From assembly GCF_003992135.1 (NCBI RefSeq), contig NZ_RQVN01000004.1, positions 62,001-126,000 on the forward strand: a stretch of 64,000 nucleotides of DNA, read 5' to 3'. Below, one piece after another: positions 7,552-45,802 of this stretch. How positions within the stretch are numbered: position 1 is the stretch's first letter; the number at the start of each line of letters is the position of its first letter. Under the pieces are notes generated by a model. It saw only the letters and a list, made by a program, of their open reading frames with translations, was not told where the DNA came from and ran no database searches. The position numbers and the translations under genes are program-made. The stretch comes from Veillonella sp. VA142 (lineage in GTDB: Bacteria > Bacillota > Negativicutes > Veillonellales > Veillonellaceae).

Positions 7552-9522
7552 CTAGAAATGATAGGAATAATTCACATAATAATTACGCGGTAAATCCCAG
7601 TATTCCCATTCGCCTTGAGAGATGACATTTTTACGATTTAACAAGTTATTTACATAGAATCCAATTGTTTGTGACTCATTCGGGCTATAGTTTACATGGG
7701 CATTTATATTGATAAACTCTGGATTGCGTTGTTTGTCCCGATTATAGGCACGAATACCCCAATAGGACGCAGCTAATCCAACTTGCCATTTATCTTTTTC
7801 ATAATCTAAGGCTAGGTTTAACTCTAATTTAGGAGCTGTTTGTACCCAATCTTTTTTATTAACATCTTGTTTTTTAGGATTAGAGTAGGATGCACCTAAG
7901 GTCATAATTATATCACTAGTTACATACGATTTATACTCTGCTTCAACCCCTGTATTGCGGAATTCTCCACCATTGATACGAATAGTTTTACGATTTCCAT
8001 CAAGAGGATTCTCCGCCCAATCAAAGAAATTTTTAAATTTCATGTGATACAGACTAACACGCCAAGAATCTCTCTTATTAGCTTGTTTATACCCAATTTC
8101 ATAATTCCAACCTTCTTCTGGTTTCAATTTGCCACCTGGTATTTTCATATACTCAGAAGGTTTAATTTTTTTAGGATCTGTTACCCATTTAAAAGCATCA
8201 TGAATATTCGGCATTGTAAACGCTTTACCTATATTCGTATAGATGGATTTTGAACTATCAATCTTGTACAAGGTTTGCCATTGTGGTGTAAATACTTGTT
8301 GATCTTTAATCGGATCATTAATAACTTGGTATCGACCACCAATAGTAGTGCTGAAAGATGGAGTAATCTGGAATTCATAATTACCATATAATGCTACAAT
8401 ATTACGTCCTGCTTTTACCATGTGATTCGCCTCTGATTTACCATGGTATGCTTCATGAATTGCCTGCACCCCTAACACTGCTTTATTTGTATCCTTATGC
8501 GCCTTCCAAGTATGCTGTGCCTCTACACCCACTTTATAAGCACCATAATTATAAGGGCTTTGCACATACGCAGGTTTCGCTAAACTGTTGCTTTCGCCTA
8601 TTAATCGACGAGTATTAAAGAATACGCTTGCTTTCGTTGTTGCATCCTCATAGACAATAGATCCATTATTTTTAATATCTCGATAATGCCAATATTTGGT
8701 TTCTGTTAAAGCCGATTTTTTCGGTGTCCATTTTGCCTTTGGTATGGTACTAATTTGTCCATATGTAGAATCGCTTTGTTGACGCATATAGTTAATTGTT
8801 ACATAATCATGTGGCTTCACATTCACCGCTATATTATGAGCATACCCCTTATCACGTGTATTGTAGTAATCAAGCCCTGTTCTATTTGGAGATGTTCTCG
8901 CTTGTGCCCCATAGTACTCTTTTGATGTGGAAATTTCAATTTTTTCAGTGCCTACAGTAGTCGCATATTTTTTATAGCCTTCATTACCAATGCCCGTTTC
9001 AATTGTACCATGCGCTTTCGTTGGTGTTTTTGTAATCACATTCACAACACCTCCTAATGCTTCGGAACCATATTGTGCAGACGCAGCACCGCGAACGATT
9101 TCAATGCGTTCAACATTATCCATCATCAGACCATTTAAACTGTTTTTACCATCTAAATTGATAGGTGCACCATTCACTAAGACCAAGGCGCTTCTATCTA
9201 AGCCACGGATATTCGTACGACTTTCCATACTGCCAAACTCTAATCCTAAGGGTCCATAACTAAAAGTTGTGATACCTGTAGCCTGTCCTACTGCGTCAAA
9301 AATACTCTTCGCTCCAGAGTTTTTCAAGTCTGCTTGATCAATAACCGTAACAGATGCTGGTGTTTCTAAATCTTTTGTCTCAAACCGTTGTGCTGTCACA
9401 ACCACTGGATTAAGTACCGTTACAGGTCCTAAATCTGTTATAGATTGTGCTTTTACTATACTTACCGTAGAACCTACAATTCCTGCAAGAACTGCTAAAT
9501 ATAATGCCTTCCCTTTCATCAT
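7552..9522 (-). CDS. TonB-dependent outer-membrane receptor (HmuR-like by context)
   Basis: A 656-residue receptor with a signal peptide (about residues 1-25), a plug domain (about 45-165, with SRTNIRGLDRSALVLVNGAP and RIEIVRGAASAQYGSEALGG) and a C-terminal barrel ending in YSYHF, the usual aromatic terminus. It imports a metal chelate across the outer membrane using TonB energy. AGGAGG at 9528-9533 serves ATG 9522 or 9519; the second has the better spacing. It heads the chelatase/ABC operon. A transcribed leader of about 140 bases with hairpins precedes it. Confidence 0.93.
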   Translation of the reverse strand: MMKGKALYLAVLAGIVGSTVSIVKAQSITDLGPVTVLNPVVVTAQRFETKDLETPASVTVIDQADLKNSGAKSIFDAVGQATGITTFSYGPLGLEFGSMESRTNIRGLDRSALVLVNGAPINLDGKNSLNGLMMDNVERIEIVRGAASAQYGSEALGGVVNVITKTPTKAHGTIETGIGNEGYKKYATTVGTEKIEISTSKEYYGAQARTSPNRTGLDYYNTRDKGYAHNIAVNVKPHDYVTINYMRQQSDSTYGQISTIPKAKWTPKKSALTETKYWHYRDIKNNGSIVYEDATTKASVFFNTRRLIGESNSLAKPAYVQSPYNYGAYKVGVEAQHTWKAHKDTNKAVLGVQAIHEAYHGKSEANHMVKAGRNIVALYGNYEFQITPSFSTTIGGRYQVINDPIKDQQVFTPQWQTLYKIDSSKSIYTNIGKAFTMPNIHDAFKWVTDPKKIKPSEYMKIPGGKLKPEEGWNYEIGYKQANKRDSWRVSLYHMKFKNFFDWAENPLDGNRKTIRINGGEFRNTGVEAEYKSYVTSDIIMTLGASYSNPKKQDVNKKDWVQTAPKLELNLALDYEKDKWQVGLAASYWGIRAYNRDKQRNPEFININAHVNYSPNESQTIGFYVNNLLNRKNVISQGEWEYWDLPRNYYVNYSYHF

Positions 9523-37227: not shown

Positions 37228-37400
37228 TCTTCTTTTTCTATTTTTTTCGATTTTTTATCATTATTTTTAGATTTTGAGAAGGACTATATATTATATGGAC
37301 TGAAATGCTCAATCATTCATGCATATCTCTATGAAAGAGAGTATACTATCTATGCAAGAACTTTCATTATATAATATTATACACATTGGAGGTGAGATAT

Positions 37401-38441
37401 ATGATGAGTCTAATTAGTCGCGCTTTTACCCGAGCGAAACAAAATCTCAGTTCTCATAAAGTAAAAATATATATTGTCTCTGGTTTCTTAGGGGCAGGAA
37501 AGACAACATTTATTCAGCAACTCATACAAGAATTACCAGATCCAACAAGAGTTTTAATTTTAGAGAATGATTTTGGCCAAGTCAATTTAGATGGAGCCAT
37601 TCTTCGAGAAAAAGGATATACCGTTCGTGAGCTTACATCTGGGTGCATTTGTTGTAGCTTAGCTGGAGATTTTCGCAGAGCTTTAATAGATATTTTAGAT
37701 ACCCAAGATGTAGATTATATTATTATTGAACCATCCGGAGTAAGCCAATTATCGGATATCCTAGCTATTTGCAAAGATTCATCGATTGCAAAACGCATTG
37801 AACTCACTGGTTGTGTATCTATAGTTGATGCTATGAGAGCCCCTATGTATTATAAAAACTTTGGTATTTTCTTCAAAGATCAAATTGCATACTCTAGCCA
37901 AGTTTTTATTAGCCATCAAGAAGATGGGAATCTTCTGCAAAACACCTTGGAAATTATACGTAGTTTAAATCCAGCAGCACCTATCTACATTGTGCCATGG
38001 AACGAAATTACACTTTCAAAATACATTTCAATGTACCCACGAGAGCAAGCCATATCATCCGTATCTCCTAGTAAGAGTATTGAAAATCATACAGGGCACC
38101 ATACGGTACGGAATCATCCTGAGATCTCTCATCATGACCATATCGCGCATCATGCACAGGCTAAAGATACTTTCTTGACATGTACTGTAGAGTGTACCTT
38201 ACCTCGTACAATCGATGAGTGGCAAGATCATTTAAAAGCCCTCATCGAAACAAATGCAACAGGACATATATTACGCTTAAAAGGTTGCATTCCCCTTTCC
38301 ACGGGAGGACAAGCTTTGGTGCAATACAATGGCAGTGGTTTAGAGATTACTCCTACCACATTACATGATTCATATTTAACCATCATTGGCCCCTCTTTAA
38401 ACAATGATGCATTGCAGTCTTTTATTAACGGAACAATGTAA
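37401..38441 (+). CDS. COG0523 (CobW-like) metallochaperone GTPase
   Basis: 346 residues from ATG 37401, which has GGAGGTG six bases upstream. G3E GTPase with Walker A SGFLGAGKTT (about 28-37), the metal-site CxCC in SGCICCSLAGD, and the IIEPSG stretch. A histidine-rich loop near residues 228-253 (HHTVRNHPEISHHDHIAHH) separates it from the C-terminal CobW_C domain. Members deliver zinc, cobalt or other metals to clients. The next two genes form a tight cluster with it, as ycgR/ycgQ-like genes do in other Firmicutes. Zinc is the commonest substrate; not proven here. Confidence 0.9.
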   Translation: MMSLISRAFTRAKQNLSSHKVKIYIVSGFLGAGKTTFIQQLIQELPDPTRVLILENDFGQVNLDGAILREKGYTVRELTSGCICCSLAGDFRRALIDILDTQDVDYIIIEPSGVSQLSDILAICKDSSIAKRIELTGCVSIVDAMRAPMYYKNFGIFFKDQIAYSSQVFISHQEDGNLLQNTLEIIRSLNPAAPIYIVPWNEITLSKYISMYPREQAISSVSPSKSIENHTGHHTVRNHPEISHHDHIAHHAQAKDTFLTCTVECTLPRTIDEWQDHLKALIETNATGHILRLKGCIPLSTGGQALVQYNGSGLEITPTTLHDSYLTIIGPSLNNDALQSFINGTM

Positions 38442-38446
38442 TACGT

Positions 38447-39934
38447 ATGCAAACTATTCCCACCTATGTAGTGATGGGCTTTCTTGGCTCTGGAAAAACT
38501 AGCACCATCACCACTGGCATTGAAAGCCATAAAATATCAAATGTTCTTCTCTTTCAATTTGAGCAGGGCATAGAACGTCCCTCTCTTTCCAACGACAGAG
38601 TCCATACCTTCTCCATCGATGATGATCATGGCAATACTATCTCTGCATGTCAACAAGTATTAAAAGAGCATCAGTATCGTGAACTTTGGATTGAATGGAA
38701 TGGAATGGGGTCTTTAGAAACTTTTGAAGAACTTTTTCTCCGCTCTCCCTTAGGTGATATGTTAACTATCAAACATATCTATTATGTAACACATCCAGAC
38801 TGGATTACATCACAGCTCCCTTATTTAGGAGAAATTCCTCTTTCACAAATTCGTTATAGCGATACTATTATACTTGCTAATACCTCAGCAGAAAAAGCTA
38901 CTGAATATACTGAGTTAGCTCCTAATAGCACTTGGATTGCCTGTGAAAGTGTAACACAATGGCCCTTTGTAAAACCTATACAAATTGCTAAACCTAGATG
39001 GAAGCAATATGCTATAATTCCTATCCTCTTAGCCTTGGGGTATATGTTTTATGTACAGCCTAATTGGGTGACTATGACAACGGCCATCCTATTACAGATG
39101 GTCCCTTTCTTACTCTTAGGGACTGGTATTTCTGTCATAGTGGAACAATATGCCTCCCCCTATCGTATCGAAAAATATTTACATCGCTCCCCTATTTTTG
39201 CCTATATACTAGCCATAATAATGGCATGTACTATGCCTCTTTGTGACTGTGCAGTAATTCCTATCTTACGTAGTCTAACACGTCAGGGTATGGCTCCAAA
39301 GATAAGTTTATTCTTCACGATGATTAGCCCTTTGGTCAATCCTATCGTCCTACTCTCCACCTATTATGCATTTCCTAAAGAACCTATGATACTTTGGGGA
39401 AGACCTCTCTTAGGAATTGTATTAGCTTTTCTAGTAAGTCAATATTGTGGTCCCCGCATCTACGGTCGTACCGATGCATTCCCACCATGGAAACAATTAA
39501 CCTTAGTAAAATCGCTATCAAAAGATGTAGGATTTTTTGGAAGATTGCAAGAAGAAACCTTACGCCTATTGCCCTTTATTATAATTGGGTCTATACTAAG
39601 TAGTGGGTTACAATTATTTTTACCTAAACAGTGGCTCCAAGATATATCCTTATCTGGTTCCATTCTAATCATCTTGGGTATGATGGTCCTCGCCTTTTGC
39701 GTATCCATCTGCTCTACCGCAGATGCCATTATCGCTAGGTCTTTTATGAACGTCATTCCTGTACCAGGAATTTTGGCATTTTTAATTTTTGGACCTTTAT
39801 TAGACATTAAAAACTACGTTTTGTTACGTAATCTGTTCCCAAATTCCTTTGTGAAAGTATATAGTATTTCTATTATTCTGGGAACAACGATTATATGTAT
39901 CCTATTTTCGTTCATAGGAGGTTATGCACTATGA
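38447..39934 (+). CDS. Fusion of a CobW-like P-loop domain and a UPF0718 (YcgR-type) permease
   Basis: 495 residues. The first 180 resemble a COG0523 GTPase (Walker A VMGFLGSGKTST, WIEWNGMGS in the Walker B area) but lack the CxCC metal motif. Residues about 190-495 are a polytopic permease with the UPF0718 signature MPLCDCAVIP and ICSTADAII. Such permeases are thought to move metals or other small solutes; this fusion suggests nucleotide-regulated transport. The start is five bases after the GTPase gene; the stop overlaps the next start. The permease identity is firm; the N-terminal function is inference. Confidence 0.85.
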   Translation: MQTIPTYVVMGFLGSGKTSTITTGIESHKISNVLLFQFEQGIERPSLSNDRVHTFSIDDDHGNTISACQQVLKEHQYRELWIEWNGMGSLETFEELFLRSPLGDMLTIKHIYYVTHPDWITSQLPYLGEIPLSQIRYSDTIILANTSAEKATEYTELAPNSTWIACESVTQWPFVKPIQIAKPRWKQYAIIPILLALGYMFYVQPNWVTMTTAILLQMVPFLLLGTGISVIVEQYASPYRIEKYLHRSPIFAYILAIIMACTMPLCDCAVIPILRSLTRQGMAPKISLFFTMISPLVNPIVLLSTYYAFPKEPMILWGRPLLGIVLAFLVSQYCGPRIYGRTDAFPPWKQLTLVKSLSKDVGFFGRLQEETLRLLPFIIIGSILSSGLQLFLPKQWLQDISLSGSILIILGMMVLAFCVSICSTADAIIARSFMNVIPVPGILAFLIFGPLLDIKNYVLLRNLFPNSFVKVYSISIILGTTIICILFSFIGGYAL

Positions 39935-40689
39935 AATACATTCCTACAATTAATATCCACGCAGCGGTAGAAATCGTGGCCTCTGCTAGTTGCAGTCTAT
40001 CTTTGTTGTATTTATTAACAACAGGCTCCATCTATCGTTTAATTGCCCCTAATTCTTATATCATTGCTTTACTATGGGCCTTAACATTATTGTTATTATG
40101 GAGCACGATTAAGGCAAGTAAAAATATGTTCCGTCGAGCCTATGGTTCTTCGTATCGAAACGCTATCCTTTACGGATTATGTACATTGCTCTTAAGTCCA
40201 TCTATCTTCCATGCCCAAGCCTTTGCTTTACCAGCAGAAGAACCGGTGGACCAAGTCATTTCCATTACCAAAGAACCGGTTCCAACGAATGATTACAAAA
40301 ATATTGGCGATGGTATTGATGACACTCATCGACACATTACATTAACATCTAAAAATTACTACGATACAATTTTGAAAGTATCTAATCACATCGAGAAATA
40401 TAAAGGATATACGGTAACCGCTACAGGGTACATTTCCTATCATGACAAAGCATTACAAGGAAACGACTTTGTATTAGCTCGCGATTTAATGATTTGTTGC
40501 GTAGCAGATATGTCCCCATTTGGATTGCCTACTGAGTATTCCTCTTCTACGCCATTATTAGAACATAGTTGGTACACCATGGAAGGAACCATCAGCACAC
40601 GTAACTTCCACGGCGTAGAACAACCATACATCATAAACAGCAAAATTACACAAGCAGATGCTATCGATGGATATATTTTCCCTAACTAA
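39931..40689 (+). CDS. TIGR03943/YcgQ-like membrane protein
   Basis: 252 residues from ATG 39931, with TAGGAGG upstream and an ATGA overlap with the permease stop; a longer open frame to 39895 is not needed. It has hydrophobic segments near 12-30, 37-55 and 75-95, then a soluble region with VTATGYISYHDKALQGNDFVLARDLMICCVADM, recalling the usual partner of UPF0718 permeases. Probably the second subunit of the transporter encoded just upstream. Substrate unknown. Confidence 0.8.
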   Translation: MKYIPTINIHAAVEIVASASCSLSLLYLLTTGSIYRLIAPNSYIIALLWALTLLLLWSTIKASKNMFRRAYGSSYRNAILYGLCTLLLSPSIFHAQAFALPAEEPVDQVISITKEPVPTNDYKNIGDGIDDTHRHITLTSKNYYDTILKVSNHIEKYKGYTVTATGYISYHDKALQGNDFVLARDLMICCVADMSPFGLPTEYSSSTPLLEHSWYTMEGTISTRNFHGVEQPYIINSKITQADAIDGYIFPN

Positions 40690-40798: not shown

Positions 40799-40969
40799 AT
40801 GGAACAGTCAAATTTAAAAAATAATGTTGCCTTAAAAAATGAACCTCATCATTCCGTTAAGGTAAGAGTAGACCCGTTTTACTCTAAAGAAAACCTTCAA
40901 TACATTAGGGATGGAATTGCTGCACTAGATGCAGGATTAGGTGTTGAACATGATATTAAAGATGCATAA
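40799..40969 (+). CDS. Short RelB/DinJ C-terminal-like protein, probable antitoxin remnant
   Basis: 56 codons with a strong AGGAGGGG site. Its second half (VRVDPFYSKENLQYIRDG, then LGVEHDI) matches the pattern that ends RelB/DinJ and YefM-type antitoxins, but the DNA-binding domain is absent; the first half has no recognisable fold. No toxin gene follows; a terminator does. It may be a decayed antitoxin or a stand-alone decoy. Confidence 0.6.
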   Translation: MEQSNLKNNVALKNEPHHSVKVRVDPFYSKENLQYIRDGIAALDAGLGVEHDIKDA

Positions 40970-40975
40970 ACTAAT

Positions 40976-41031: not shown

Positions 41032-44000
41032 TTAAAATTTATATTCGACAGCTATCTTAGTATAATCGCCTAAATCAAATTTTTCTCCTCCATATAAAGT
41101 ATCTCTACTATGAATACCTTTTGCATTGAATGTATAAGATGCAGATACATTAACATCCTGTAATGGCGTATATCTACCTCCTACAGTAAAGCTTTGTACA
41201 CCATCTAAATAACGATCTGGCAATGAATTAGTTCCATTACCACCGATAAATGATCCATGCTCAAAGTATTTATAGTCTGCATATGCATTCCAGGAACCAA
41301 CATGTTTCTGTTCTGGATGACCCACATCTAACCGAATCGTCCAGAATTTAGGGTATGAACCAATGCGTCTACCTTTGGAAGTAATAACACTATTATCATA
41401 GGTATATTGATTTTCACCATTTAAATATTTACCAAAAGATGTTCTATTTTGCCCTATATCTGCTGACACAGTTAACGTATCAGATGGCTTCCATACTAGC
41501 CCTACTCCGAGTACATTAGCTACCTGATTATATTGATACACATCATTTCCAGAAGCATTCGCATACTGCAATGTATGAGTTGAATCCTGTGTTGATCGCA
41601 TATACCAAGCTTGTACACCCCAATGTCGACCAATTTGATGTTTAAGCTGTGTAAAGAATGCTTTATTAACAGATGGAATCGTATCTTGAACAAGTACATT
41701 ACCAACAACAGGAACACGATACCCTTCTTGTTCTAACAAGTGTAAAGGAAGTGAACTATTATTCTCCGGTTTCCACAGCTCACTCGCTAACAACAACAAG
41801 ACACGTTTAGCTAATGGCGAAATATTACTCTTCACGAATCCAGTTGCTCTAGATCCATTAGGTAGTTTCTTAGTCAATGTCATCCATGCTGTATCTTTAT
41901 TCCAAAGCGATGTAATTGCTTTTGCTTTCGCTTCCTCTTGTGTCATGCGAACAAATTTGGAAGCATCAAATTTAGATAAAATGATTCCACCGTACCGTTT
42001 ACCACGATTTATCGTTCCCAAATCCTCTAGTACATCATTTCCTAAATAGGTTCCATACCCGTAAAAGTCTGAATGTAACTTATAGGATCCATCTTTTAAC
42101 AAGCCAGAGTTAGATACATACCTGGACCAATCCTCTTTATTTTCTCCTACTTGCATTGTTACATCCCAAGCTTTTGTAGCATCTTTTTCTAACAATGCTG
42201 TATCATTAGAAGCGCTCTTAGTATATACTTGTGGCAAGTCCGTAGTCATATATTCACCTACAACTTGACCAGCCGTATTAGTAACAGTCACTTTCCTCCA
42301 TATGAAACTATTCATATAGTATTGACCACTTCGATCATGTAATTTTTCATACAATTTAGGGTCATCTTTTTCAATGACCTTCATATATGTATCTATAACT
42401 GCTTTTTCCTCTTCTGGAGATTGAGCTGCTTCTAGTTTATCCCGTAGCGTTTTAAAATTATTTACATGCACACTACCATCTGTATACTCTCCTGTTAAGC
42501 CCGTCTTATCAAATGAACCTTGTCCTAACCATTCATCTTTTGTTGGTGGTCTACTAAATGATGTTTTAACAGCATGTGTGTAAGCAGAATCGGTAATACC
42601 AGTACTACGACGGAAATCTCCATATCCCATTCGTACTTCTGTCATCGGGCTTGACCATATGGCTCTCACACCATCATAGGAATCATTAAACCAGTATCCA
42701 GTCGTGCCAAGGGCTTCATATAAACGACCAACCGACCATTTCCAGTCATTCTTATGATGATTGACTTCTAATCGTTTTACCGTTACTGATTGTATGCCTG
42801 CATGCATTCCAGCATCAATTGACTGTTCTTTTCCCTTATATGATTTAGTCTCTACCGCAACATCTATCGAGGTATCTTTAGTCACAGTTCCTTTCACTCC
42901 TACCTGTACTGTGGAACTATAACCATGATTAGCCTTTTCTAAATAATTTTTATATGCATCTCCAATGGTACTTGTTGCTGTCACTCTAGCCTCTGTAGGT
43001 TTTTCTTTACCTGTAAAACTACTCCACGCACCATGATAGGACCCGAAAAATGTAAGAGGTTCTTGGATAGATTCTTGACGGATGAACCAATTCAACGGCG
43101 TATTAAAAGTTTTCTGTGATAACCTTGTAATTCCTTGGTAGCTGCGTTCACTACTATCCGCCCCAAATTTCATGTGTAAACCTACTTTATACATTCGCTC
43201 TTGATGAGCTTGGGCATCATCACGATGATTAAAGATATTATCAACACCTATGTAGGCAAGGGAATCTTTTCCTATTTTCTTTTGGAGCATAGCATTCCAA
43301 ATAGCAAAACTTTTTCTTTCGTAGGTTTGTTTCCCTTTTTCTGCAAAAGCGTATTGTGAATCGCCATTGCCCAAATCATTATGTACATAGTTACCATTAT
43401 TAGCAATAGTATTACTATCTAACATATGAATATAGTAATCTCCCCAAAGAGATGCTTGCCAACCAGATTTTTTATTTTCATACTGCAATCCTATATCGAT
43501 TTTATGTACAGGTTTATTTAATAACTGTGCCGGCATCGTTGGGTCACTGATATTACGAGCATGTAAATAAGTATAGCCGAGTCGTGTAGAAAGGTTAGTG
43601 TTGAGGGCATATTTTATTTCTCCTTCTACACCTGTAATTTCAGCTTTCCCTATATTTTTAAAGCTATAAATCATATCTGGAGGCGTTATCCACGTATTCT
43701 TACCTGCATCTGGATTAAAATTCATCAACTTCCCGGTAAAATAGGTTGTCATATAATTTTTTATATCATTATGGAACACCATCATACGACTGTGTAATCG
43801 TTTCGTATCATATTCAAAACCAAGGTCTACATTGATAGATTTTTCTGGTTTTAAATTAGGATTGCCAATCCAATAATAACCTAACTTACCAACACCAAAA
43901 TCATATGGCATCCCTGCATACATTTCCCAGTTATAGTATAATTCCCCCATCCCTGGTTCTGTATAAGCAGTTCCCACATTGGTTTTGATTCGATAGTTTC

Positions 44001-45729
44001 TATTTCCATGTACATAATGAGTTAGCCCTAAATTAAATGTCACTGTATTACCGAATAAATTACTATTGTCCCATCGAAGGATAGGTGTGAAGAATGTATT
44101 CTTATTTAACTGCCAAAAATCTGAAATGGCAATGTTCATTTTTCTAATATTTGAAGTACCAATAGTCTGGCGATTTCTACGACTTGTTCCCTCTTCTGTA
44201 AATGTTTTCCCATGCCATTTTAACGTTTTTGCATCATAGTATCGACGCATAATAATATCATCATCTGGCAAATCACCATCCTCATTAGGTGTTCGTAGAC
44301 TTTCATTTTCAGCACGCAATTCTTCTGCAAATCTATGAATTCTATCTTCATCTTCTACATCATTGGTATAATCCTGATAGGTATAGCTAGGAATGACCGC
44401 CTTCCCTTGGTGATTTTTATACCCATATAACTCATAAGCCTGATCATATTGTGGTATATCTGCTTCATCACGATATAATGCATAATCATAGACTTTGGAA
44501 CTAGGCTCACCAACACCTTTATCACTATGAAGATTTTTATCAAAGTCCCATGGATTTATATATCTTGTATGTATAGACTTCGCACTTTTCAACCGACTAC
44601 CTGAGCCGTTCTCTTCACTATAGCCCACTCGGTAGGATAAAAAATGATGGTTACCTACTTGTTGATTTAAAGTGGCATTTAATTTCCATTCACGGTGCTT
44701 CACATCATCAATATAATGTAGCGTATTTTTGCCTTCATAGGGAGAAAAGATAGCGGTAGATGAAATTGTTTTATCAAATTCTTTCTGATTATAAATAGAT
44801 AGATCAACTTTCCAGTCTAGATTTTTTTGATTATTTCCTGCGTATGTAAGTTGATGTCTCCATCGTTCTATATTTCTTCCATAATGTACTACTGGATCAG
44901 GAGCATCATTGGAATGTTTAATATCCCTATTTGTATCTTCCTTCCAATGTGTAGACTGTACACTGAAATGATGATTTGCATTGGCATCATACTCAGCATG
45001 AAATCCTAGCTCTTTAATATCTCCATAGTATCGTAATGCATTATGCACACTCCCCGATTGATTCATGGCCCCTATAAATTCTTTTTGACTATAAATAGGC
45101 ATAATATCCCGTTTACTACTATATAAAGAAACTCTACCTTTCCCTATATTTCCGGAATTAGCTCTAATAAATATATTCTTATAAGGTAACACACCATGGT
45201 CGCCTCTTATTCTACGTCCTTCTACATTCAACTCCAGTTGACTATGTTTAGTCGGTTTTGCAGTTACCACGTTGATGACGCCACCCATGGCATTCGCTCC
45301 ATATTTAGCTGAAGAAGCCCCTCTAATAACCTCAATACGATCAATGGATTCTGCACCTAAACGTTGCAATTCATCCCCTTGACCTAAATAGGCTTCCATC
45401 TCACCCATCACTGGCTGACCATTAATAAGAATTAGCGTATGACGAGGCTCTGCTCCACGAATTGATAGAGCCACTCGACCCATAGCATCTACAGTTCGAC
45501 TTACCCCAGTTTCAGTAAAAATAATATCTTCCACAGATTTAGCTTGCTTGTTAACAATATCTGCTTTTGAAATCACTGTTGTTGATAAACTTTCATCTTT
45601 TAAACTTTCTATAATTGGATTTGCACTTACATATACAGAATCTGCTGTTGCACCTTGCACACTGCTTAATGAAAGTAAACACCAAGATGCTATAGCTCCT
45701 GATATCCATGCTCTCTTACTTCTATACAT
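41032..45729 (-). CDS. Giant TonB-dependent receptor fused to a second outer-membrane barrel
   Basis: 1565 residues, about twice the usual receptor length. Signal peptide (1-29), plug (about 45-160, with LSIRGAEPRHTLILINGQP and RIEVIRGASSAKYGANAMGG), then a barrel that reaches a typical outer-membrane C terminus VGLHMKF at residue 855. The remaining 710 residues have no signal peptide, contain a helical insert rich in K and E (about 1065-1110), and end in a porin-like run closing with IAVEYKF. The Fur box at its promoter suggests an iron-repressed iron or haem receptor. Function of the extension is unknown; it may be a co-receptor or porin-like partner. Confidence 0.88.
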   Translation of the reverse strand: MYRSKRAWISGAIASWCLLSLSSVQGATADSVYVSANPIIESLKDESLSTTVISKADIVNKQAKSVEDIIFTETGVSRTVDAMGRVALSIRGAEPRHTLILINGQPVMGEMEAYLGQGDELQRLGAESIDRIEVIRGASSAKYGANAMGGVINVVTAKPTKHSQLELNVEGRRIRGDHGVLPYKNIFIRANSGNIGKGRVSLYSSKRDIMPIYSQKEFIGAMNQSGSVHNALRYYGDIKELGFHAEYDANANHHFSVQSTHWKEDTNRDIKHSNDAPDPVVHYGRNIERWRHQLTYAGNNQKNLDWKVDLSIYNQKEFDKTISSTAIFSPYEGKNTLHYIDDVKHREWKLNATLNQQVGNHHFLSYRVGYSEENGSGSRLKSAKSIHTRYINPWDFDKNLHSDKGVGEPSSKVYDYALYRDEADIPQYDQAYELYGYKNHQGKAVIPSYTYQDYTNDVEDEDRIHRFAEELRAENESLRTPNEDGDLPDDDIIMRRYYDAKTLKWHGKTFTEEGTSRRNRQTIGTSNIRKMNIAISDFWQLNKNTFFTPILRWDNSNLFGNTVTFNLGLTHYVHGNRNYRIKTNVGTAYTEPGMGELYYNWEMYAGMPYDFGVGKLGYYWIGNPNLKPEKSINVDLGFEYDTKRLHSRMMVFHNDIKNYMTTYFTGKLMNFNPDAGKNTWITPPDMIYSFKNIGKAEITGVEGEIKYALNTNLSTRLGYTYLHARNISDPTMPAQLLNKPVHKIDIGLQYENKKSGWQASLWGDYYIHMLDSNTIANNGNYVHNDLGNGDSQYAFAEKGKQTYERKSFAIWNAMLQKKIGKDSLAYIGVDNIFNHRDDAQAHQERMYKVGLHMKFGADSSERSYQGITRLSQKTFNTPLNWFIRQESIQEPLTFFGSYHGAWSSFTGKEKPTEARVTATSTIGDAYKNYLEKANHGYSSTVQVGVKGTVTKDTSIDVAVETKSYKGKEQSIDAGMHAGIQSVTVKRLEVNHHKNDWKWSVGRLYEALGTTGYWFNDSYDGVRAIWSSPMTEVRMGYGDFRRSTGITDSAYTHAVKTSFSRPPTKDEWLGQGSFDKTGLTGEYTDGSVHVNNFKTLRDKLEAAQSPEEEKAVIDTYMKVIEKDDPKLYEKLHDRSGQYYMNSFIWRKVTVTNTAGQVVGEYMTTDLPQVYTKSASNDTALLEKDATKAWDVTMQVGENKEDWSRYVSNSGLLKDGSYKLHSDFYGYGTYLGNDVLEDLGTINRGKRYGGIILSKFDASKFVRMTQEEAKAKAITSLWNKDTAWMTLTKKLPNGSRATGFVKSNISPLAKRVLLLLASELWKPENNSSLPLHLLEQEGYRVPVVGNVLVQDTIPSVNKAFFTQLKHQIGRHWGVQAWYMRSTQDSTHTLQYANASGNDVYQYNQVANVLGVGLVWKPSDTLTVSADIGQNRTSFGKYLNGENQYTYDNSVITSKGRRIGSYPKFWTIRLDVGHPEQKHVGSWNAYADYKYFEHGSFIGGNGTNSLPDRYLDGVQSFTVGGRYTPLQDVNVSASYTFNAKGIHSRDTLYGGEKFDLGDYTKIAVEYKF

Positions 45730-45753
45730 TTACAACACATCCTTCCATAAAGT

Positions 45754-45802
45754 AGTAATGATTATCATATTTACTATATGACTTTCAAATAGGTACTGTC
45801 AA
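45754..45802 (-). promoter_or_regulatory. Promoter and Fur box of the giant TonB gene
   Basis: TTGACA (45797-45802), 18-base spacer, TATAGT (45773-45778). Directly downstream, 45754-45772 reads AGTAATGATTATCATATTT, agreeing with the E. coli Fur consensus at 14 of 19 positions, including the TAATGATTATCAT core. Iron repression is inferred. Confidence 0.75.

What the first reader, a model, noticed from the sequence alone, without database searches (positions are those of the whole stretch)
41032..45729. TonB receptor that carries a second outer-membrane barrel in the same chain
A complete receptor appears to end at residue 855 with an aromatic-terminated strand, yet the frame runs 710 residues further to another outer-membrane-type C terminus. 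No signal peptide lies at the junction, so a recent stop-codon loss joining two genes is unlikely. Two barrels in one polypeptide would pose an unusual assembly problem for BAM and might couple substrate capture to a second pore.
Basis: partly seen in the sequence, partly recalled or inferred. Interest (0 to 1): 0.7.

Follow-up and report, generated by a model that had tools for sequence, protein, structure and literature searches.

The report
TonB receptor fused to OmpM porin
A Veillonella-type bacterium makes an outer-membrane iron or heme receptor that carries a complete second pore, taken from the OmpM porin family, in the same protein chain; dozens of related Negativicutes have the same old fusion, so it raises a real question of how one chain folds into two barrels and what the second pore does.

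Summary
Observation confirmed. ORF 41032-45729 (-) encodes 1565 residues with two predicted, complete outer-membrane barrels. Residues 1-855 are a normal TonB-dependent receptor: plug plus 22 strands, ending where BtuB and Cir end. After a variable linker, residues 891-1565 form a 16-strand porin barrel. Its best solved match is OmpM1 of Veillonella parvula (Z 28.8, 2.6 A), and both halves align to OmpM barrels in profile comparison. It lacks OmpM's SLH anchor and has a ~315-residue, fast-diverging insert, by my strand mapping in extracellular loop 4.

This is no lost stop codon: 75 frames across Veillonella, Megasphaera, Anaeroglobus, Selenomonas, Centipeda, Colibacter and Sporomusaceae join the two barrels (53 at >=1500 aa). 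None breaks at the junction, and the halves have congruent trees.

Relatives lie 0.2-2.8 kb from HutW (anaerobic heme degradation) in 15 genomes; two loci read gene by gene also hold ExbB, ExbD, TonB and a flavodoxin. 41 of 42 genomes with the fusion have HutW. A Fur-like box precedes the window gene. Best reading: an iron-regulated heme/hemoprotein receptor with a built-in OmpM-type porin carrying a surface domain. Multi-barrel outer-membrane proteins are already a described class, so this is a new variant. The window copy's function is inferred.

The parts
45753..45767 (.). Fur-box-like palindrome (ATATGATAATCATTACTA), 24-38 bases upstream of the start codon
   Evidence: 2 mismatches to TGATAATNATTATCA. 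Window-wide matches of this quality are not rarer or commoner than chance; the support is the position, its conservation in the ortholog L075, and the excess upstream of relatives: 34 of 64 with <=3 mismatches against about 4 in shuffles
41032..45729 (-). Whole gene: 1565-residue TonB-dependent receptor / OmpM-type porin fusion
45646..45729 (-). Sec-type signal peptide, about residues 1-28
   Evidence: read from the sequence; no signal-peptide predictor was run
45622..45642 (-). TonB-box-like motif DSVYVSA, residues 30-36
   Evidence: position and pattern in alignment A4; inspection only
45277..45600 (-). Plug domain, residues 44-151
   Evidence: PF07715, E 7e-20
43165..45243 (-). 22-strand TonB receptor barrel, residues 163-855
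   Evidence: PF00593 107 bits, up to profile position 436/436; AlphaFold2 pLDDT 76.2, pTM 0.73; VIA Z 33-40 to FecA, PirA, Cir, BtuB, FepA
43165..43194 (-). Last receptor strand MYKVGLHMKF, residues 846-855: an internal beta-signal-like sequence
   Evidence: aromatic or hydrophobic at 855 in all 63 fused proteins, F in 52; last strand of the model
43060..43164 (-). Inter-barrel linker, residues 856-890, presumably periplasmic
   Evidence: 33-68 residues in relatives, conservation 0.27; pLDDT below 50 over model residues 832-859, i.e. protein 858-885
42616..43059 (-). OmpM-type porin barrel, strands 1-7, residues 891-1038
   Evidence: AlphaFold2, VIA match to OmpM1, HHalign 96.7% to OmpM barrels
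42670..42708 (-). Porin loop 3, GTTGYWFNDSYDG, residues 1008-1020
   Evidence: conservation 0.83; loop 3 constricts the pore in OmpM1 (PMC10628300); loop number from my strand mapping
41665..42615 (-). Inserted alpha/beta domain of about 315 residues, residues 1039-1355, assigned to extracellular loop 4
   Evidence: fold confidence mostly 85-95; conservation 0.30 in its core; no solved relative found by sequence; loop assignment by mapping strands onto OmpM
41035..41664 (-). OmpM-type porin barrel, strands 8-16, residues 1356-1565
   Evidence: HHalign 99.7%, E 4e-26 to OmpM barrels; PF16930 Porin_5 in all 20 members scanned
41200..41265 (-). Porin loop 7, FEHGSFIGGNGTNSLPDRYLDG, residues 1489-1510: the most conserved motif of the porin domain
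   Evidence: window scores 0.88-0.91; loop 7 also constricts OmpM1 (PMC10628300)

Best explanation
The gene encodes a Fur-regulated outer-membrane receptor made by an old fusion of a CirA/FepA-type TonB-dependent receptor with an OmpM-type porin. Predicted by structure and sequence: residues 1-855 form a plugged 22-strand barrel driven by TonB; a flexible linker leads to a second, 16-strand barrel that has lost OmpM's SLH anchor and gained a large inserted domain. Topology (even strand number in both barrels) puts the linker in the periplasm and, by my strand mapping, the insert on the cell surface in loop 4. Inferred: the family is the heme receptor (HmuR role) of the anaerobic heme-uptake operon of Negativicutes; the loop-4 domain captures or positions the heme carrier beside the receptor mouth, and the porin barrel anchors it, perhaps as a pore and as a trimer scaffold. 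BAM must insert two barrels from one chain, using one internal and one C-terminal beta-signal. Confidence: two-barrel architecture about 0.95; heme uptake for the family about 0.7, for the window's own copy about 0.5; capture role of the insert about 0.35.
For: Architecture. VIA puts OmpM1 at Z 28.8 against about 21 for the next porins. Old and maintained: 75 joined frames, no break at the junction; N and C trees correlate (Mantel r 0.87, best of 999 permutations 0.21; 38 of 60 splits shared). Heme context: HutW (TIGR04107 above cut-off) 0.2-2.8 kb from a fused gene in 15 genomes: 12 Veillonella with one inherited arrangement, plus G087, G099 and G120; fused gene next to ExbB-ExbD-TonB-flavodoxin-HutW in L097 and L063; IsdE-like heme-binding protein plus HutW beside the copies in L061. 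HutW in 41 of 42 genomes with the fusion against 60 of 258 without. The same gene set in Fusobacterium nucleatum degrades heme anaerobically (PMC10404700). Iron control: Fur-like boxes.
Against: No joint model of both barrels was possible. The window copy is not in a heme operon: its neighbours are an M16 peptidase and a CobW/ArsP-type metal-transport set, and HutW lies 56 kb away on the same contig. By sequence the receptor half is nearest to siderophore receptors Cir and PfeA, not heme receptors, and scores far below the NCBIfam hemin-receptor cut-off. The Fisher test ignores common ancestry. The receptor model is only moderately confident (pLDDT 76). No solved relative of the insert was found, so its binding role is a guess.
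Confidence: 0.62

Rival explanations
1. Two barrels as described, but the substrate is a siderophore or another metal complex, with the porin domain only a structural partner (for example a trimer scaffold holding three receptors).
For: Nearest solved sequences are Cir, PfeA, PirA and FepA. The window copy sits by a metal-transport gene set. OmpM1 is a trimer (PMC10628300). Megasphaera cerevisiae carries many copies, as receptor families for varied ligands do.
Against: Repeated linkage to HutW and its operon in several lineages. Paralogs may still differ in ligand.
Confidence: 0.25
2. The chain is cut in the linker after export, giving a separate receptor and a separate porin, so the mature membrane holds two ordinary proteins.
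For: The linker is long, variable and predicted disordered.
Against: No conserved cleavage motif in the linker (alignments). The fusion is kept in all relatives and never split at the gene level, which has no obvious advantage if the parts act alone.
Confidence: 0.08
3. One very large barrel of about 38 strands instead of two.
For: No joint prediction could be run. SlpA shows that OmpM-like barrels can reach 30 strands (PMC10628300).
Against: Each half aligns over its full length to closed barrels with their own last strand. The linker between them is disordered and variable.
Confidence: 0.03
4. Recent stop-codon loss or sequencing artefact joining two genes.
For: Some draft genomes have broken copies.
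Against: 97%-identical ortholog in Veillonella sp. CHU740 (L075), two more fused paralogs in the own genome, joined frames in several families, no break at the junction.
Confidence: 0.01

Closest known systems
OmpM1 of Veillonella parvula (SLH-anchored 16-strand porin; PDB 8bys, 8bym, 8byt; PMC10628300)
   Same: Same predicted 16-strand barrel (VIA Z 28.8, rmsd 2.6 over 286 residues, about 19% identity); detectable sequence homology in both halves; conserved loops 3 and 7, which form OmpM1's constriction
   Different: No SLH domain or coiled-coil stalk; a TonB receptor in their place; a ~315-residue insert that I place in loop 4
CirA / PfeA / FepA / BtuB-type TonB-dependent receptors
   Same: Plug and complete 22-strand barrel, TonB-box-like motif
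   Different: The chain does not end at the last strand; a second barrel follows
HmuR and the anaerobic heme-uptake operon of Fusobacterium nucleatum (hmuTRUV, hmuW, hmuF; PMC10404700)
   Same: TonB receptor beside HutW/HmuW-type radical SAM enzyme, flavodoxin, ExbB, ExbD and TonB in related loci
   Different: That paper describes the receptor (HmuR) as an ordinary TonB-dependent receptor; its text as searched mentions no porin fusion. The window's own copy stands outside such an operon
Multi-barrel outer-membrane proteins such as GfcD/YjbH (Solan, Pereira, Ben-Tal 2021, doi 10.1073/pnas.2104059118, as cited in PMC11494523 and PMC8592465)
   Same: Two membrane barrels in one chain
   Different: GfcD is a 12- plus 13-strand protein for lipid-anchored polysaccharide; here a plugged TonB receptor joins a general-porin-type barrel. 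Whether the 2021 survey lists this combination could not be checked (paper not held)

Membership tests
TonB-dependent receptor | Plug domain and TonB receptor barrel | tested here: met
   PF07715 71.9 bits, PF00593 107.3 bits, both over cut-off
TonB-dependent receptor | Closed 22-strand barrel | tested here: met
   Model with 22 strands by my count; Z 33-40 to solved receptors over 507-603 residues
TonB-dependent receptor | TonB box and energy coupling by TonB | tested here: inconclusive
   Box-like DSVYVSA by inspection; coupling not testable here
OmpM (SLH-anchored porin) | 16-strand OmpM-type barrel | tested here: met
OmpM (SLH-anchored porin) | N-terminal SLH domain | tested here: not met
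   No SLH in the Pfam scan up to E 1; genuine OmpM homologs in the same search space do show it
OmpM (SLH-anchored porin) | Trimer and general diffusion | not testable with these tools
   needs purified protein
Pfam PF16930 Porin_5 | Score over the family cut-off | tested here: met
   Window copy borderline: 22.2 bits in the genome search but 20.0 in the protein scan, cut-off 22; all 20 relatives match, best E 5e-10
Multi-barrel outer-membrane protein | Two closed barrels in one chain | tested here: met
   By prediction of each half apart; no experiment and no joint model
TonB-dependent heme receptor (HmuR-like) | Sequence family of hemin receptors (TIGR01785) | tested here: not met
   106 bits against a cut-off of 317
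TonB-dependent heme receptor (HmuR-like) | Operon with heme-degradation genes | tested here: inconclusive
   Met for relatives, not for the window copy
TonB-dependent heme receptor (HmuR-like) | Binds and imports heme or hemoproteins | not testable with these tools
   needs growth or binding tests

The most novel reading that the evidence does not exclude
The porin barrel is a working second pore of the uptake machine: its loop-4 surface domain strips or holds the heme carrier next to the receptor mouth in the same molecule, doing in one chain what separate co-receptor lipoproteins (TbpB, HpuA, BtuG) do elsewhere. V. parvula and relatives would then have iron-induced 16-strand porins that were missed because they are annotated as TonB receptors, and BAM would fold two large barrels from one chain by an internal and a terminal beta-signal.
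Probability: 0.3. Interest if true: 0.8.

Novelty: new variant of a known kind. Interest (0 to 1): 0.62.

Why it matters
It is a conserved, multi-genus case of a plugged TonB receptor and a general-porin-type barrel in one chain. It makes a BAM question directly testable: how are two large barrels inserted from one polypeptide, and is an internal beta-signal used? It also bears on a published statement that the four OmpM proteins are likely the only porins of V. parvula (PMC10628300): strain SKV38, the one used there, encodes two of these fusions (L114), each ending in an OmpM-type barrel. And it suggests an unusual receptor for anaerobic heme uptake in commensals of the mouth and gut.

Tried and rejected
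Stop-codon loss or split genes: rejected. Phase variation as the cause of broken copies: no long homopolymers or repeats at the breaks, so decay or draft errors are likelier. SLH-anchored OmpM membership: rejected, no SLH domain. Phylum-wide spread: in 398 genomes of the phylum only Negativicutes matched; the 84,980-species scan with two motif patterns also gave only Negativicutes. Other phyla were covered only by those exact motifs, so absence there is weakly tested. Sequence relatives of the inserted domain: none convincing (hits to designed solenoids and OspC look like chance helical matches). Hydrophobic alternation of the 16 porin strands was only weakly above shuffles (114 of 2000 reach it), so it is not used as evidence. 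Fur boxes: within the window alone the pattern is not above chance. Literature searches for a TonB receptor-porin fusion found none, but the library lacks most subscription papers, including the 2021 multi-barrel survey.
Full report
What is there. The frame 41032-45729 on the minus strand is open for 1565 residues and starts with a Sec-type signal. Pfam finds a plug (44-151) and a TonB receptor barrel that runs to its last profile position at residue 832. A profile of the receptor half finds Cir, PfeA, FepA and BtuB among solved structures.

First barrel. AlphaFold2 on residues 27-885 with 18 relatives gives pLDDT 76.2 and pTM 0.73, with 22 barrel strands by my count of its secondary structure; the last strand lies at residues 846-856 and the tail after it has pLDDT below 50. 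VIA-align 2 matches it to FecA (Z 40.4), PirA, FyuA, Cir, BtuB and others; BtuB and Cir reach their own final residues (594 and 663) at model residue 829, which is protein residue 855.

Second barrel. AlphaFold2 on residues 861-1565 with 20 relatives gives pLDDT 85.8 and pTM 0.71. The best solved matches by Foldseek and by VIA are the OmpM1 porin entries of V. parvula (Z 28.3-28.8, rmsd 2.6-2.7, 284-287 residues aligned of about 310-320, 19-20% identity), well above the next porins at Z about 21. Profile comparison with OmpM barrels taken from the own genome and from other Negativicutes gives 99.7% probability for the back half (E 4e-26) and 96.7% for the front half (E 4e-10). All 20 relatives match Pfam Porin_5; the window copy is borderline (20.0 bits, 22.2, cut-off 22). 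Unlike OmpM, no SLH domain is present, while true OmpM genes found by the same means have it.

The insert. Between the strands that align to OmpM strands 7 and 8-9 lies an insert of about 315 residues (261-425 in relatives). Counting strands on the model and on OmpM puts it in loop 4, which faces outward. This rests on my mapping and not on coordinates, which were not available. Its core is poorly conserved (0.30) while the loop-3 and loop-7 motifs, which form the constriction in OmpM1 (PMC10628300), are among the most conserved parts of the domain (0.83-0.91). No solved relative of the insert was found by sequence.

Age and spread. The own genome has two more fused copies in tandem. A search of 300 genomes of the class and a scan of 84,980 species found the porin domain in Veillonella, Megasphaera, Anaeroglobus, Selenomonas, Centipeda, Colibacter and Sporomusaceae. 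In 71 loci, 75 frames contain both the receptor's end and the porin's start, 53 of them 1500 aa or longer. All C-only fragments begin inside the porin domain, so breaks are never at the junction. Trees of the two halves agree (63 proteins, Mantel r 0.87 against a permutation maximum of 0.21; 38 of 60 splits shared). This points to one old fusion that has stayed together.

Context and function. Relatives of the gene lie 0.2-2.8 kb from HutW, the radical SAM enzyme of anaerobic heme degradation, in 15 genomes. Twelve are Veillonella that share one inherited arrangement; three (G087, G099, G120) are other lineages. In L097 (V. denticariosi) the order is fused receptor, ExbB, ExbD, TonB, flavodoxin, HutW; in L063 (Sporomusaceae MAG) ExbB, ExbD, TonB, flavodoxin, HutW, fused receptor. 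In L061 an IsdE-like heme-binding protein and HutW lie beside fused copies. HutW is present in 41 of 42 genomes with the fusion and 60 of 258 without (p 2e-21, not corrected for ancestry). A Fur-box-like palindrome sits 24-38 bases before the window gene, and 34 of 64 related genes have a box with at most 3 mismatches against about 4 expected from shuffled sequence (shuffles kept base content only, and relatives are not independent). I therefore read the family as the heme receptor of the anaerobic heme-uptake operon known from Fusobacterium (PMC10404700). For the window copy this is an extension: it stands between an M16 peptidase and a CobW/ArsP metal-transport set, has an ortholog in only one of five other genomes of its genus, and may have another ligand.

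Mechanism. Shown by prediction: two complete barrels and a flexible linker. Follows from strand parity: linker in the periplasm. Inferred: uncut insertion of both barrels by BAM with one internal beta-signal (MYKVGLHMKF, with an aromatic or hydrophobic residue at 855 in all 63 proteins); a capture or positioning role for the insert; a working pore in the second barrel.

Novelty. Multi-barrel outer-membrane proteins are an accepted class (Solan et al. 2021, known here only through PMC11494523 and PMC8592465). I found no report of a TonB receptor-OmpM fusion, but could not read that survey. I file it as a new variant. [quoted passage not shown] parvula, and strain SKV38 encodes two of these fusions (L114). 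The V. parvula outer-membrane proteome found TonB family proteins Vpar_0065 and Vpar_0066 in the membrane (PMC5491611); these adjacent tags may be the tandem fused pair, which I could not verify.

Noticed in passing
L076, L084, L085, L088, L089, L096, L099, L101, L103, L105, L107, L110, L112, L135, L136, L143, L144 (Megasphaera cerevisiae DSM 20462): One genome carries some 17 copies or fragments of the fused receptor, many with broken frames; no long homopolymers at the breaks, so probably decay or draft errors rather than phase variation.
   Followed up: partly
window 37386-40689: CobW GTPase, a CobW-like domain fused to an ArsP_1-type permease, and a TIGR03943/DUF1980 subunit: a putative metal efflux or uptake set beside the receptor.
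   Followed up: partly
window 40801-40970: Small ORF of about 55 residues on the + strand between the DUF1980 gene and the receptor's 3' end, with a good ribosome-binding site by eye.
   Followed up: no
L055:3126-5447: A YadA-type trimeric autotransporter adhesin lies directly upstream of the tandem fused receptors in the own genome.
   Followed up: no
window 7552-9522: A separate 656-aa frame with a TonB receptor plug region and no second barrel (weak match).
   Followed up: no
G000:C4:45737-46990: The own genome's HutW gene lies on the same contig, about 16 kb before the window starts.
   Followed up: partly
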